A stretch of 64,000 bases of DNA from positions 1,426,001 to 1,490,000 of the forward strand of contig NZ_AP028947.1 in the NCBI RefSeq assembly GCF_036323495.1, written 5' to 3'. This stretch comes from Limnobacter thiooxidans. Lineage in GTDB: Bacteria > Pseudomonadota > Gammaproteobacteria > Burkholderiales > Burkholderiaceae_B. The position numbers were made by a program, and so were the translations under genes. Positions 32,937-37,707 of this stretch are shown piece after piece; the stretch's first letter is position 1, and each line of letters opens with the position of its first letter. Under the pieces are notes generated by a model. That model saw nothing but the letters and a program-made list of their open reading frames with translations, was not told where the DNA came from and made no database searches.

Positions 32937-32965
32937 AAAAAAGGTCACCCCAAGGTGGCCTTTTT
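32937..32965 (+). terminator. Rho-independent terminator between rplI and dnaB
   Basis: Poly-A, AAGGTCACC, loop CCAA, GGTGGCCTT, then TTTTT. Nine-pair stem with one G-U. It ends 13 bp before the dnaB start codon. Confidence 0.8.
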
Positions 32966-32978
32966 CTATTGTGAACCT

Positions 32979-34364
32979 ATGTCCGAGAATCGACTTACAG
33001 AACAAGAAATGACGGGTCTTCGCGTACCGCCGCACTCGCTTGAATCCGAGCAGTCGGTTGTGGGGGGCTTGCTGCTTGATAACCAGGCCTGGGACCGAAT
33101 CGGTGATGTGATTCGAGCTGATGATTTCTACCGCTATGACCACAGGGTTATTTTTGAGCACATTGCCAAGCTGATCGACGGGTCCAAGCCGGCCGACGTG
33201 ATCACCGTGTATGAATCGCTTCAGTCCTCGGGCAAAGCCGAGGACGTCGGCGGGTTGGCTTACCTGAATACCTTGGCCACCAACACCCCATCAGCAGCCA
33301 ACATTCGCCGCTATGCGGAAATTGTGCGCGACCGCGCAGTGTTGCGCCGCCTCATCACGATTAGCGATGACATCGCCACCACCGCGCTGAATCCCCAGGG
33401 CAAAGACACCAAAACCATTCTCGATGAAGCCGAAAGCAAGATTTTCAAGATTGCTGAAGACGGTGCACGCGGCGCGGGTGGTTTTCAGGATTTGCAGCCT
33501 GTTCTCAGCAAAGTGGTTGAACGAATCGACGAGTTGTACCATCGTGACAGCACCAGCGACATCACGGGTATTTCCACAGGTTTTGTGGACCTGGACAGCA
33601 AAACATCGGGTTTGCAGCCTGGCGATTTGATCATCGTGGCTGGAAGACCCTCAATGGGAAAAACCGCCTTCAGCTTGAATATTGGCGAACACGTGGCTGT
33701 GGAGGAGGGCCACGCAGTGGCCGTGTTCTCCATGGAAATGGGTGCCACGCAGTTGGCCATGCGTTTGTTGGGCTCTGTCGGAAGGTTGGACCAGCATAGG
33801 TTGCGCACAGGCCGCTTGACTGACGAAGACTGGCCGCGCCTGACCTATGCGGTCGAGAAAATGCAGAACGCGCAGCTGTTCATTGATGAAACGCCTGCCT
33901 TGTCGTCCATGGAAGTGCGGGCGCGCTGCCGCCGATTGGCGCGCCAATGTGGCCAGCTCGGTTTGGTGATCATCGACTACCTTCAATTGATGGGTTCTTC
34001 GTCGCCGGGTGAAAACCGCGCCACTGAAATTTCCGAAATTTCCCGTTCATTGAAAGGTTTGGCCAAGGAATTGAATTGCCCGGTGATTGCGCTTTCGCAG
34101 TTGAACCGTTCTTTGGAACAGCGACCCAACAAGCGCCCGGTAATGAGTGACCTTCGTGAATCCGGTGCGATCGAGCAGGATGCGGATGTGATCTTGTTCA
34201 TTTACCGCGATGAAGTGTACAACCCCGATTCGCCGGACAAAGGCACGGCGGAAATCATTATCGGCAAACAACGTAATGGACCGATTGGCGCCATTCGCGT
34301 GACTTTCCTGGGTATGTACACCAAGTTTGAAAACTACGCTGGCCCGCAACCCGAAAGCGAATAA
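32979..34364 (+). CDS. dnaB: replicative DNA helicase
   Basis: The hexameric 5'-3' helicase of the replication fork. 461 residues. N-terminal domain VPPHSLESEQSVVGGLLLDN; RecA-like motor with Walker A GRPSMGKTAF, Walker B VIIDYLQLMGSS, and the late DLRESGAIEQDADVILFIYRDE. The ATG at 32979 is used; a frame start at 32955 lies within the terminator hairpin and adds a non-family leader. A TATACT at 32911-32916 could be part of its promoter, but then the terminator is transcribed first. Confidence 0.96.
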   Translation: MSENRLTEQEMTGLRVPPHSLESEQSVVGGLLLDNQAWDRIGDVIRADDFYRYDHRVIFEHIAKLIDGSKPADVITVYESLQSSGKAEDVGGLAYLNTLATNTPSAANIRRYAEIVRDRAVLRRLITISDDIATTALNPQGKDTKTILDEAESKIFKIAEDGARGAGGFQDLQPVLSKVVERIDELYHRDSTSDITGISTGFVDLDSKTSGLQPGDLIIVAGRPSMGKTAFSLNIGEHVAVEEGHAVAVFSMEMGATQLAMRLLGSVGRLDQHRLRTGRLTDEDWPRLTYAVEKMQNAQLFIDETPALSSMEVRARCRRLARQCGQLGLVIIDYLQLMGSSSPGENRATEISEISRSLKGLAKELNCPVIALSQLNRSLEQRPNKRPVMSDLRESGAIEQDADVILFIYRDEVYNPDSPDKGTAEIIIGKQRNGPIGAIRVTFLGMYTKFENYAGPQPESE

Positions 34365-34712
34365 CGTTCCTGTTCGGCGTTCGTTATTGCGTGTCCCACC
34401 TTTGACAAGGCAATGTATCGCAAGCCTATTTCGGTCTCGTTGCTGCTCATCTCGCCTTGGACAAGGCTGATTTCCCGTCTTGTTGATTCTGGCTTGGGGT
34501 ATGCGAAACGCAAAGCGTCTTCGCATCGATTGCTAGCGCAATCGCCCCGCGCTGCGAATCAGCAGGGAAGCCTTGTCCTGAATCGGCAAGTTGATGCAGC
34601 AAACGAACACCTCACAGGCTGTGAACTTGCGTCGGTGAAAGGGCGGGGATTCACTCAACGTCGCAAGTCACAAGTCGCTAGTTTGCATCCTCGGTAAGCT
34701 CTGTGACCCTGT
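34365..34712. other. 348-bp non-coding region rich in hairpins
   Basis: No convincing gene on either strand. The open frames here are basic or low-complexity and lack ribosome binding sites. The region contains the large element at 34459-34578, and a further dyad at 34626-34667 (CTTGCG, then GTGAA, loop, TTCAC, CGCAAG). It separates dnaB from an AT-richer two-gene island. Confidence 0.6.
34459..34578. repeat. structured element 1: long stem capped by two hairpins
   Basis: The outer arms GGACAAGGCT (34459-34468) and AGCCTTGTCC (34569-34578) are perfect complements. Inside, CTTGTTGATTC pairs with GAATCAGCAGG (two G-U), then GGGG with CCCC. The cap is two adjacent hairpins: 34501-34526 (11 bp with one bulged C) and 34527-34544 (7 bp, loop TAGC). 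The architecture matches element 2 at 35795-35917. Confidence 0.6.
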
Positions 34713-35198
34713 TTAGTCCTCGATCAAGCTATTGTGCAAACTTGTAGTCTGTTCACCAGTGACATCATCAATTTTCCATCTTCCGGTTTCTCGAACCAGA
34801 TCAAGCCTTAGCTTTTCAGTCATTCCGGAAACCAAGAGGGTAACCCGAACTGTTACCTGACCATCTTTTGAAACTCCAGGTGTTATTTCAACAATTTGAA
34901 CTGATGCAGGGTCCTGACAATTACACAATGGATCGGCAGAAATTTTGCCGATTTCTCCGGATGCAATTTGTTGTTGCTGCTCTTTTCTAATCAGCCCCAG
35001 AAGTGTTGATGAGTAAATTTCATCAGCTTTGTCCAACGAGGAAGAATTTGAGTTTTCGTGGTACAGCTCAGCATATGTATGCTGAACAAAATCTACGCCT
35101 TTAGGCTCAGATTTTTCATTTAAAAACCACAAAACAACTGCAAGGCCAAGAGCGGAAAGCAGCCCGATTACAACTGAAAAATTCCGTGAAAATTTCAT
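34713..35198 (-). CDS. DUF3828-like exported or membrane-anchored small protein, possible immunity protein
   Basis: 161 residues. The N-terminal hydrophobic segment VVIGLLSALGLAVVLWFL after a basic start predicts a signal anchor. The rest would be periplasmic: a YAELYHENSNSSS helix, the DPLCNCQDP motif, and a C-terminal LRLDLVRETGRWKIDDV...SLHNSLIED typical of DUF3828 proteins. The start overlaps the end of the amidase-like gene by 4 bp (ATGA), the classic layout of an effector/immunity couple. The gene is visibly richer in A and T than its neighbours, suggesting transfer. The immunity role is inferred. Confidence 0.65.
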   Translation of the reverse strand: MKFSRNFSVVIGLLSALGLAVVLWFLNEKSEPKGVDFVQHTYAELYHENSNSSSLDKADEIYSSTLLGLIRKEQQQQIASGEIGKISADPLCNCQDPASVQIVEITPGVSKDGQVTVRVTLLVSGMTEKLRLDLVRETGRWKIDDVTGEQTTSLHNSLIED

Positions 35199-35614
35199 TT
35201 ACTGTCCTTGGGGAATCGATAGATGGCTACATCGGGATCTGCCTTTCTGTATATCGGACCACCCCACATGTCACGTTGTTTGAAATCTGAAATCCATTCC
35301 TTTCCTGTGAACATTGCGATATGTCCCTCCGGTCTGCCACCCTCAACGTTGGGGATGACTGCAATATCGCCAGCTTCAGGTGAATAATTCTTGCAACTTG
35401 ATGAATCAATCAATACCCCTTTGCTGTATCGATTTAGTTTCAATCCGTACCTTGATAGTACTGGATCATAAAGCTTGGCCTGCCCAAGAGTTGGTCTGAT
35501 TTAAATGCCGCCAGCGTCCAGAGCCAAGCGCACATGAAGTGCGCATTTGCCTTGGGACGAGGTATTTGCAATGCTGACGAGCTTCTTTATTGCTTTGTTG
35601 ATGTTGAAGGTCAT
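35195..35614 (-). pseudogene. peptidoglycan amidase-like gene (NlpC/P60 or CHAP type) with in-frame TAA
   Basis: Read from ATG 35614 (MTFNINKAIKKLV) there are 139 sense positions with one TAA at codon 38 (35501-35503). The same frame continues on both sides with family-like sequence. Before the stop is GKCALHVRLALDAGGI, carrying the putative nucleophile C24. After it come IRPTLGQAKLYDPVLSRYG and AGDIAVIPNV, PEGHIAMFTGKEWISDFKQ with putative catalytic H98, and RDMWGGPIYRK. The pattern fits secreted cysteine amidases, including type VI secretion effectors. A single C-to-A change (TCA to TAA) would explain the stop. Only the part after TTG 35443 appears as a normal open frame, and it lacks the cysteine. 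Confidence 0.72.
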
Positions 35615-35794
35615 GAATAATTACCGATTTTGAATTGACCGCACATACCAACATATTCAGTTCATGGGGTACCAATTTTTTGTCTGGCAATTCCCCCCGG
35701 GGGATAAAAACGGCGTGCATCCTTTAAATCGCAAGTCGCAGGCGCAGCCACTTCAAGTTTGCAAAGGCTGCATTGCCCTCGCACCGCCATTCAA

Positions 35795-35917
35795 GAAAGC
35801 CTGCCCTTGTGTTGAATTCCACGACCGTTCGGCTGAAAGCCGAAAGCGCAGCCCGCCCTCTTTTTAGCGGGTGCGCTTAGGTCGTGGGATCAACAACAAG
35901 GGAGAGTTCAGGCTTTC
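35795..35917. repeat. structured element 2: long stem closing a three-way junction
   Basis: Outer arms GAAAGCCTG (35795-35803) and CAGGCTTTC (35909-35917) are perfect complements. CCCTTGTGTTGA pairs with TCAACAACAAGGG (one bulge), and CCACGACC (35819-35826) with GGTCGTGG (35880-35887). This stem closes two hairpins: TTCGGCT/AGCCGAA with a GAA loop (35828-35844), and an 11-bp stem with one bulged G and a CCTCTTTTTA loop (35845-35877). Confidence 0.65.
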
Positions 35918-36013
35918 AGGCGGAAGACGGCATGCGCCTGAGCAAACGAATAAAAAGCTGTGCTTTTGGACATACGCCTTAGGATTTGCGTCTGAGTAAG
36001 CGAAGAAATTTGC

Positions 36014-36036
36014 GCCTTGCAATCAACTTGCAAGGC
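36014..36036. other. perfect hairpin beyond the 3' end of phoH
   Basis: GCCTTGCAA, loop TCAAC, TTGCAAGGC. It starts 16 bp downstream of the phoH stop on the minus strand. There is no real U-tract after it, so it may stabilise the mRNA 3' end or act with Rho. Confidence 0.45.
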
Positions 36037-36051
36037 ACAGTTCAATGCGAC

Positions 36052-37707
36052 TTAAAGGTTATCCGACGCAAAATCAGCCAAACGCGAACGTTCTCCACGC
36101 TGCAAGGTGATGTGCCCGGCATGTGGCCAGCCCTTGAATCGATCCACCACATACGTCAGGCCCGATGAGCCTTCAGTCAGGTAGGGTGTGTCGATCTGCG
36201 CCAGGTTACCCAGGCAAATCACCTTGGTACCGGGGCCAGCCCGGGTAATCAGGGTTTTCATTTGCTTGGGTGACAAGTTTTGTGCTTCATCAATAATCAG
36301 GAACTTGTTGATGAAGGTACGACCGCGCATGAAGTTCATGGACTTGATCCGGATCTTGGTGCGAATCAGGTCGGTCGTGGCTGAGCGGCCCCAATCGCCA
36401 CTGCTGGGGTCGGGCTTGTTCAGCACTTCCAGGTTGTCTTCAAACGCGCCCATCCAGGGGGCCATTTTTTCTTCTTCCGTACCCGGCAGGAAGCCGATAT
36501 CCTCACCCACCGGCACGGTGGCGCGGGTCACAATAATTTCTGAATATTGCTTGCTTTCCAGCACCTGCGACAAGCCAGCAGCCAAGGCCAGCAAGGTTTT
36601 GCCCGTACCTGCCTGGCCCAGCAAGGTGACAAAGTCACATTCCGGGTTCATCAGCAGATTCAGTGCAAAATTCTGTTCGCGGTTTCTTGCAGTAATTCCC
36701 CACACGCTGTTTTTGTTGTGGCTGAAATCGCGCAGGGTTTTAAGCACTGCGGTGCGGCCATTGACTTCAAGTACTTGTGCGATCAAGGGGATTCCAGTTT
36801 CGCAATACACGAACTGGTTGACCATCATGTCTTTTACAGCGGGACCGCTGACGCGGTAGTAGGTGCTCCCGCCTTGTTGCCAGCTTTCAATGCCTTTGCT
36901 GTTCTTCTCCCAGAAATCGGACTGCAATTCCATGATGCCTGAATACAGCAAATCCCGATCTTCAAGTACCTGGTCATTGAAATAGTCTTCAGCCAACAAA
37001 CCCAGCGCGCGGGCCTTGATGCGCATGTTGATGTCTTTGGACACCAGGGCAACTTCACGTTCAGGGTGAAGTTTGCTCAGGGCAAACACCACACCCAGAA
37101 TCTGGTTGTCTGCTTTCCCAACGGGCAGGGTTTTTGGAAGTTCAGCAGCCAGTTCAGTGGTTTGCACCAAAAGGCGGCCCAGTGCGTCCACATTGCCCAG
37201 TCGGTCCAATGCCACGCCTTTCTCGATGTCATCGATGTTTTCCATCAATGCGTCCAGCGAGCGGCTCACCTGCCGTGCATGGCGTGCTACTTCCGACATG
37301 CCTTTCTTGTGATTGTCCAGTTCTTCCAGCGTAATCAGCGGCAGGAAAACATCGTGTTCTTCAAACCGGAACAAGGACATCGGGTCGTGCATCAACACAT
37401 TGGTGTCGAGCACAAATATCTTTTTGCCAGTGAGTGTGACCTGGCGGCGTGGTTTCCCAGCGGGAGTCTGTGCAGGTATTTTGGCTTTTGACGAAGCGGC
37501 CTTGGGTATGTTGCGTGTTCGGTTGGACTCTGGCGCCTTCGCTGTCGGAGCGTTATTGCTCGCCAGAACCAATGGGGTTTTCGCTGCGTTGTTGGGTACT
37601 TCGAGTGATTCTGTGCTTCGGGCCGGCTTTTTGGTTCTGGGCACCGAAATTGGAGGAATTTCGTTCAGTGTGGTTGCGGGTTTGCTGGGTTCTTTGGGCA
37701 GAGGCAT
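36052..37707 (-). CDS. PhoH family ATPase with N-terminal PIN domain
   Basis: 551 residues. Residues 1 to about 92 are disordered, rich in Pro, Ala, Lys and Ser. Then comes a PIN RNase domain (KIFVLDTNVLMHDP, with LITLEELDNHKKG and the late acidic KDINMRIKA). Last is a PhoH ATPase (Walker A LLGQAGTGKTLLALA, Walker B FLIIDEAQNLS). This is the PhoH2-type architecture, in which an RNA helicase-like motor is joined to a ribonuclease. ATG 37707 is used; a TTG two codons upstream is possible. 68 bp downstream of bcp on the same strand. Confidence 0.9.
   Translation of the reverse strand: MPLPKEPSKPATTLNEIPPISVPRTKKPARSTESLEVPNNAAKTPLVLASNNAPTAKAPESNRTRNIPKAASSKAKIPAQTPAGKPRRQVTLTGKKIFVLDTNVLMHDPMSLFRFEEHDVFLPLITLEELDNHKKGMSEVARHARQVSRSLDALMENIDDIEKGVALDRLGNVDALGRLLVQTTELAAELPKTLPVGKADNQILGVVFALSKLHPEREVALVSKDINMRIKARALGLLAEDYFNDQVLEDRDLLYSGIMELQSDFWEKNSKGIESWQQGGSTYYRVSGPAVKDMMVNQFVYCETGIPLIAQVLEVNGRTAVLKTLRDFSHNKNSVWGITARNREQNFALNLLMNPECDFVTLLGQAGTGKTLLALAAGLSQVLESKQYSEIIVTRATVPVGEDIGFLPGTEEEKMAPWMGAFEDNLEVLNKPDPSSGDWGRSATTDLIRTKIRIKSMNFMRGRTFINKFLIIDEAQNLSPKQMKTLITRAGPGTKVICLGNLAQIDTPYLTEGSSGLTYVVDRFKGWPHAGHITLQRGERSRLADFASDNL

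What the first reader, a model, noticed from the sequence alone, without database searches (positions are those of the whole stretch)
35195..35614. Amidase-like gene interrupted by one in-frame TAA
From ATG 35614 the frame reads family-like sequence on both sides of a TAA at 35501-35503, with C24 (GKCALHVR) before it and H98 (EGHIAMF) after it. Frame and spacing are kept, so this is a point nonsense, not a frameshift; TCA to TAA would suffice. Either the gene died recently, the base call is wrong, or the stop is read through. A lethal peptidoglycan enzyme might be tolerated only when truncated, yet its putative immunity gene is intact.
Basis: partly seen in the sequence, partly recalled or inferred. 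Interest (0 to 1): 0.72.

Follow-up and report, generated by a model that had tools for sequence, protein, structure and literature searches.

The report
Broken antibacterial toxin, intact antidote gene
A bacterium, probably Limnobacter, carries a cell-wall-cutting weapon gene that a single early stop signal appears to have disabled, while the neighbouring antidote gene is still whole; this is a new example of a decay pattern already seen in other bacteria.

Summary
The frame 35614-35195 (-) has 139 codons and one in-frame TAA at codon 38. Both sides belong to one family: the post-stop piece finds 14 homologues, which align across codon 38 without a gap there, and the pre-stop piece is 86% identical to the closest. 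The family is Tae3, a type VI secretion (T6SS) peptidoglycan amidase: an intact relative matches PDB 4HZ9 at E 6.6e-15, with C23/H81 aligned to C24/H98. The overlapping downstream gene is an intact DUF3828/Tai3-type immunity gene. The single-contig genome has T6SS genes. The post-stop part is still conserved (NG86 dN/dS 0.05-0.08), so the stop is recent or a base-call error. Uninterrupted copies exist at three other loci of the genus, one at the same chromosomal site. A further copy has its own TAA and a frameshift, again beside an intact immunity gene. Best reading: a recently killed tae3 with retained immunity. Read-through is unlikely. It is a new instance of a known kind, of low to moderate interest.

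The parts
35504..35614 (-). Tae3-like effector gene, codons 1-37 before the stop; holds the catalytic-type Cys (C24)
   Evidence: C24 aligns with C23 of PDB 4HZ9 (dyad named in PMC11796386)
35501..35503 (-). in-frame TAA, codon 38, at a variable column where 14 of 14 relatives have a sense codon
35195..35500 (-). Tae3-like effector gene, codons 39-139 plus TGA; holds the catalytic-type His (H98)
35195..35443 (-). downstream restart frame (TTG, 82 aa), the longest listed in this frame; lacks the Cys, so not expected to be an active enzyme
34713..35198 (-). intact DUF3828/Tai3-type immunity gene, 161 aa, hydrophobic N-terminus (by eye), QD motif; its ATG overlaps the effector's TGA (ATGA) and an AAGGA stands just upstream
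   Evidence: PF12883 E 7.1e-13; alignment A2; junction sequence

Best explanation
This is the remnant (pseudogene) of a tae3 effector gene of a Limnobacter-type T6SS, killed recently by a point nonsense mutation, beside its intact tai3-type immunity gene. An intact Tae3 is injected into the periplasm of rival Gram-negative cells, where its Cys-His dyad cuts peptidoglycan; Tai3 in the producer's periplasm plugs that active site (established for the family, not shown here). Here the stop separates the Cys from the His, so neither the 37-residue peptide nor a restarted 82-residue product can be an active enzyme of this kind. The cell would keep protection against Tae3 from its kin without delivering Tae3 itself. 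Shown: the stop, the homology on both sides, the dyad positions, the intact immunity frame, T6SS genes in the genome, and uninterrupted relatives. Inferred: loss of activity, continued expression and protective value of the immunity gene, and that the base is real. I do not file it as a working Tae3.
For: Homologues align through the stop. Tae3 identity rests on PDB 4HZ9 and on the dyad C23/H81 described in PMC11796386 (passages). The immunity gene is DUF3828; PMC13082787 (passages) names Tai3 as the best-characterised DUF3828 protein and mentions a QDX motif, and QD is invariant in 5 of 5 aligned immunity proteins. T6SS genes are present: TssK, TssL/DotU, a VgrG-type protein, TagF, an FHA protein, TssC and two Hcp. 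The same site is uninterrupted in Limnobacter sp. P1. Post-stop NG86 dN/dS is 0.08 and 0.05 against two uninterrupted orthologues, so there has been little time to decay. Apart from the stop and the last residue, codon 58 is the only position where the window departs from all 14 relatives, and there all 14 agree.
Against: No reads were available, so a base-call error is open. The conserved post-stop part is equally what an intact, miscalled gene would show. Expression and function of the immunity gene were not tested. Its dN/dS (NG86 0.29 and 0.26; YN00 0.40 and 0.26) is averaged over a divergence mostly older than the nonsense, so it does not show selection after effector loss. In P. aeruginosa, PMC12594252 (passages) reports that in the patients it compares, isolates lacking an effector gene also lack its immunity gene, so retention is not the general rule.
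Confidence: 0.83

Rival explanations
1. The TAA is a sequencing or assembly error and the effector gene is intact.
For: The post-stop part is about as conserved as the pre-stop part (NG86 dN/dS 0.08 and 0.05 against 0.06 and 0.07) and the frame is kept. There is precedent: PMC7702109 (passages) reports T6SS effector genes of Vibrio cholerae W10G wrongly broken in a PacBio genome and corrected by Sanger sequencing.
Against: The genome is a single 3.54 Mb contig, 99.4% complete, though the sequencing method is not known to me. The frame shows no indel, whereas the cited artefact was an inserted base. Codon 58 also departs from a residue shared by 14 of 14 relatives, a slight hint of relaxed constraint.
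Confidence: 0.12
2. The TAA is read through or recoded, giving a low level of full-length effector.
For: The frame is open on both sides, and conserved residues lie on both sides.
Against: The stop is not conserved: 14 of 14 relatives have a sense codon there. The other TAA-bearing copy in the genus has it at a different codon and is frameshifted as well. TAA ends 5 of 8 genes checked in the window. ARAGORN found no tRNA in the window; the rest of the genome was not scanned for suppressor tRNAs.
Confidence: 0.03
3. The short N-terminal or restarted C-terminal product has a new function of its own, for example as a decoy or as extra immunity.
For: A TTG-started 82-aa frame exists and is conserved at residue level.
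Against: The close relatives that are intact keep one uninterrupted gene. A recent nonsense mutation explains the conservation without a new role, and no Pfam or NCBIfam family above its cut-off matches either piece.
Confidence: 0.02

Closest known systems
Tae3/Tai3 of Ralstonia pickettii (PDB 4HZ9)
   Same: Homologous over residues 15-134 of the intact relative P0004 (E 6.6e-15), with C23/H81 aligned to C24/H98. The neighbouring gene is DUF3828, the Tai3 domain.
   Different: The Limnobacter-type family has an extra stretch of 14 residues ahead of the GD motif, and the window copy carries a nonsense codon. Sequence search of the immunity protein did not reach Tai3 in the PDB; the link is by Pfam domain, QD motif and gene order.
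Decayed T6SS toxin clusters with orphan immunity in the Ralstonia solanacearum species complex (PMC11481896; passages)
   Same: Loss through deletions, frameshifts, premature stops or insertions, with orphan immunity genes noted. That paper finds about 23.5% of 1,066 clusters with a loss-of-function change in a vgrG, toxin or immunity gene.
   Different: Those are VgrG-linked aux clusters; here the pair stands alone between a dnaB-type and a PhoH-type gene.
Orphan immunity arrays of Vibrio cholerae (PMC5361080; passages)
   Same: Immunity gene retained after effector loss.
   Different: There the effector is displaced by insertion of a new module; here it is killed in place by a point mutation.

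Membership tests
Tae3 (T6SS amidase effector) | Sequence homology to the solved Tae3 | tested here: met
   P0004, an intact relative, hits 4hz9_A at E 6.6e-15; the X-marked window frame is 86% identical to P0004
Tae3 (T6SS amidase effector) | Catalytic Cys-His dyad in one protein | tested here: not met
   Both residues are encoded (C24, H98), but the TAA at codon 38 lies between them. So it is filed as a tae3 pseudogene, not as a Tae3. Of 14 relatives, 13 have both residues; P0009 starts after the Cys
Tae3 (T6SS amidase effector) | T6SS apparatus in the same genome | tested here: met
   TssK, TssL/DotU, VgrG-type, TagF, FHA, TssC, Hcp; not every core gene was sought
Tae3 (T6SS amidase effector) | Peptidoglycan amidase activity and T6SS delivery | not testable with these tools
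   needs biochemistry
Tai3 (DUF3828 immunity) | DUF3828 domain over Pfam cut-off | tested here: met
   49.3 bits against a cut-off of 26
Tai3 (DUF3828 immunity) | QDX motif, which PMC13082787 links to Tae3 inhibition | tested here: met
   QD invariant in 5 of 5; the motif is described in passages seen; that it is the same QD was not checked against the paper's alignment
Tai3 (DUF3828 immunity) | Tai3 fold | tested here: inconclusive
   The model has mean pLDDT 54.7, too poor to compare; no fold search was run
Tai3 (DUF3828 immunity) | Periplasmic export | not tested
   The N-terminus looks like a membrane or signal segment by eye; no signal-peptide predictor was run
Programmed stop-codon read-through | Stop conserved among orthologues | tested here: not met
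   0 of 14 relatives have a stop at this column
Orphan immunity locus | Immunity gene intact without a functional cognate effector in the genome | tested here: met
   Intact immunity frame, interrupted effector, and one match only for the Tae3-like protein and for DUF3828 in the genome at E 0.001; rests on the base call being right

The most novel reading that the evidence does not exclude
tae3-tai3 pairs decay one-sidedly: selection by kin carrying intact Tae3 repeatedly turns these pairs into defence-only loci by killing the effector in place and keeping the antidote, even in a species where the T6SS marker TssK was not found. In this genus it is seen at three apparently independent stages: a fresh nonsense (window), a nonsense plus frameshift (L010), and a deleted remnant (L005).
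Probability: 0.25. Interest if true: 0.45.

Novelty: new member of a known kind. Interest (0 to 1): 0.25.

Why it matters
It seems to catch an interbacterial weapon just after disarmament, beside an intact antidote and with an uninterrupted sister copy at the same chromosomal site. That makes it possible to ask whether immunity is kept by selection once the weapon is lost. The general phenomenon (orphan immunity, decayed T6SS toxin clusters) is already in print (PMC11481896, PMC5361080; passages).

Tried and rejected
Pfam and NCBIfam on the two pieces apart gave nothing above cut-off: CHAP at 12.5 bits against a cut-off of 26 for the post-stop piece, nothing meaningful for the 37-aa piece. The immunity protein found no solved relative by sequence, alone or as a 5-row profile (the profile's only match up to E 10 is a designed protein at E 0.87). 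Its structure model was poor (mean pLDDT 54.7), so it was not searched against the PDB and no fold claim is made. The promoter scan of 34360-36060 gave 1 promoter-like site, against 2.4 in shuffles, on the strand opposite to both genes; 5 terminator-like sites, against 2.1 in shuffles, were not followed up. My first codon comparison used a start one codon late for L008 and L009; its effector numbers are discarded and one search replaces them.

Considered and rejected: a frameshift (no gap near the stop); a different upstream start (the upstream ATG of the window is out of frame with the effector, counted by eye on the sequence); a general recoding of TAA (TAA ends 5 of 8 genes checked, the immunity gene among them).

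Full report
WHAT IS THERE. The frame from ATG 35614 to TGA 35195 on the minus strand has 139 codons and one in-frame TAA at codon 38, 35501-35503. The window lies at 1,426,001-1,490,000 of a single-contig 3,536,915-base genome, 99.4% complete. A named relative with the same gene order (L008, Limnobacter sp. P1) suggests Limnobacter (Burkholderiales). The names dnaB and PhoH for the flanking genes are read by eye from their translations; no family search was run on them.

BOTH SIDES ARE ONE FAMILY. The pieces were searched apart. The 101-residue post-stop piece found 14 proteins of 14 candidates at E 1e-3 or better; 8 of the 14 are 138 or 139 aa long, the others 114 to 158. The pre-stop piece alone is 86% identical to the best of them. 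With X at the stop, the frame aligns to the 14 with no gap at or beside codon 38. 14 of 14 have a sense codon at that column, and the column is variable.

WHAT FAMILY. Pfam is nearly silent: CHAP below cut-off, or nothing. An intact relative, P0004, matches PDB chain 4hz9_A at E 6.6e-15 over residues 15-134; the other three matches listed are at E 0.17 or worse. PMC11796386 (passages) names 4HZ9 as Ralstonia pickettii Tae3 with catalytic C23 and H81. Counting along the alignment puts these on C24 and H98 of the window frame. PMC6099711 (passages) lists Tae3 as an amidase whose cleft is entered by a loop of Tai3. Three of the 14 homologues carry a JGI label of secreted protein VgrG, and the printed label of a fourth is cut off at the same words; their length and alignment do not fit a VgrG, and I disregard the label.

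THE PARTNER. The next gene, 35198-34713 (-), is an intact 161-aa DUF3828 protein (49.3 bits, cut-off 26). PMC13082787 (passages) calls Tai3 the best-characterised DUF3828 protein and links a QDX motif to Tae3 inhibition; PMC12135965 (passages) also lists DUF3828/Tai3 among T6SS immunity domains and Tae3-like domains in other effectors. QD is invariant in the five immunity proteins aligned. The two genes overlap by ATGA, and an AAGGA stands just before the immunity ATG, so the immunity gene may be translated on its own even if ribosomes leave at codon 38; this is inference. At E 0.001 it is the only DUF3828 match in the genome, and the effector locus is the only Tae3-like match.

IS THERE A T6SS? 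Yes, in two places. TssK, TssL/DotU, a VgrG-type protein, TagF and an FHA-type T6SS protein lie near 3.26 Mb; TssC and two Hcp lie near 0.14 Mb. Not every core gene was sought.

RELATIVES IN THE GENUS. Of 16 genomes of the genus (the window's own included), 4 have a Tae3-like match; 13 of 16 have a TssK match. Of 268 genomes of the family, 3 have a match at E 1e-10 or better, all in this genus. Copies: window (1 TAA). G012 contig 12 = L009, uninterrupted, beside dnaB but with another neighbour on the far side and a different C-terminal tail that overlaps its immunity gene. G012 contig 18 = L010, one TAA at codon 20 and a frameshift between about codons 103 and 109, with an intact DUF3828 gene behind it (40.7 bits). 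G002 = L004, uninterrupted, its neighbour matching DUF3828 below cut-off (21.9 bits). Limnobacter sp. P1 = L008, uninterrupted at the same dnaB-PhoH site. G003 = L005 is a remnant without an intact frame, followed by an intact DUF3828 gene (E 5.6e-17); no TssK was found in G003, and the window's own immunity protein did not find that gene.

WIDER COUNT. Of the 15 loci that genome contigs returned, I read 11 as having an uninterrupted frame with both motifs, three of them (L011, L013, L020) in much longer frames (the script's own motif pattern was too narrow, so this is by eye), and 4 as broken or cut short: L010, L015, L021, L022. Adding the window and L005 gives 6 broken loci. The adjacent gene is an intact DUF3828 frame over cut-off in 4 of 6 (window, L005, L010, L021), below cut-off in L022 (17.4 bits), and an open frame without a Pfam match in L015. 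Of the 11 uninterrupted loci, 6 have a DUF3828 neighbour over cut-off (L008, L011, L012, L014, L017, L018), 1 below (L020), 1 an open frame without a match (L013), 1 no downstream frame of 90 aa or more (L019), and 2 were not scanned by Pfam (L009, which aligns at 70% identity to the window's immunity protein, and L016). L019 and L013 do not fit a simple story. The sample was found through the effector, several records are drafts or MAGs, and the loci are not independent of phylogeny, so I make no statistical claim.

AGE OF THE STOP. Against L008 and L009 the effector has NG86 dN/dS 0.07 and 0.06; the post-stop part alone has 0.08 and 0.05 (YN00 about 0.13 and 0.09), with NG86 dS 0.87 and 1.10; the pre-stop part has 0.06 and 0.07. 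The immunity gene has NG86 0.29 and 0.26; dnaB against L009 has 0.02. So the stop is young compared with the split, or it is not real. Apart from the stop and the last residue, codon 58 is the only place where the window departs from all 14 relatives.

HOW IT WORKS. Most likely the Tae3 is dead because the stop parts the Cys from the His, and only the antidote is left. Cell-level consequences (no Tae3 attack, continued protection from kin) are inferred.

WHAT IS KNOWN. PMC11481896 (passages) found about 23.5% of 1,066 Ralstonia T6SS clusters with a loss-of-function change in a vgrG, toxin or immunity gene, premature stops included, and noted orphan immunity genes. PMC5361080 (passages) describes retained immunity genes in Vibrio cholerae. 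PMC12247911 (abstract and outline) shows that orphan immunity can protect gut bacteria. Against a general rule, PMC12594252 (passages) found orphan immunity rare in P. aeruginosa isolates (11 isolates with tsi4 but no tse4). PMC7702109 (passages) is a warning: broken effector genes there were a sequencing artefact. One search for Limnobacter with type VI secretion listed 7 papers; I read none of them, so I do not claim that Limnobacter Tae3 is unreported.

Noticed in passing
L008:7028-9490 (-) against window 32955-34364 (+): The dnaB-type frame of Limnobacter sp. P1 is 820 aa against 469 aa in the window; the extra stretch begins just after GRPSMGK and looks like an intein (by eye, no family search).
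   Followed up: no
G000:C1 near 0.14 Mb and near 3.26 Mb: The T6SS genes of this genome are split over two distant loci.
   Followed up: partly
L019:6169-7068: An uninterrupted Tae3-like gene in Superficieibacter electus has no downstream open frame of 90 aa or more where an immunity gene is expected.
   Followed up: partly
L005:1427-2182: Species G003 keeps an intact DUF3828 gene behind a tae3 remnant although no TssK was found in its genome.
   Followed up: partly
L034:1007-1522 (-): An NlpC/P60 protein (PF00877, E 3.3e-33) is encoded near the T6SS genes of this genome; it may be an ordinary housekeeping hydrolase.
   Followed up: no
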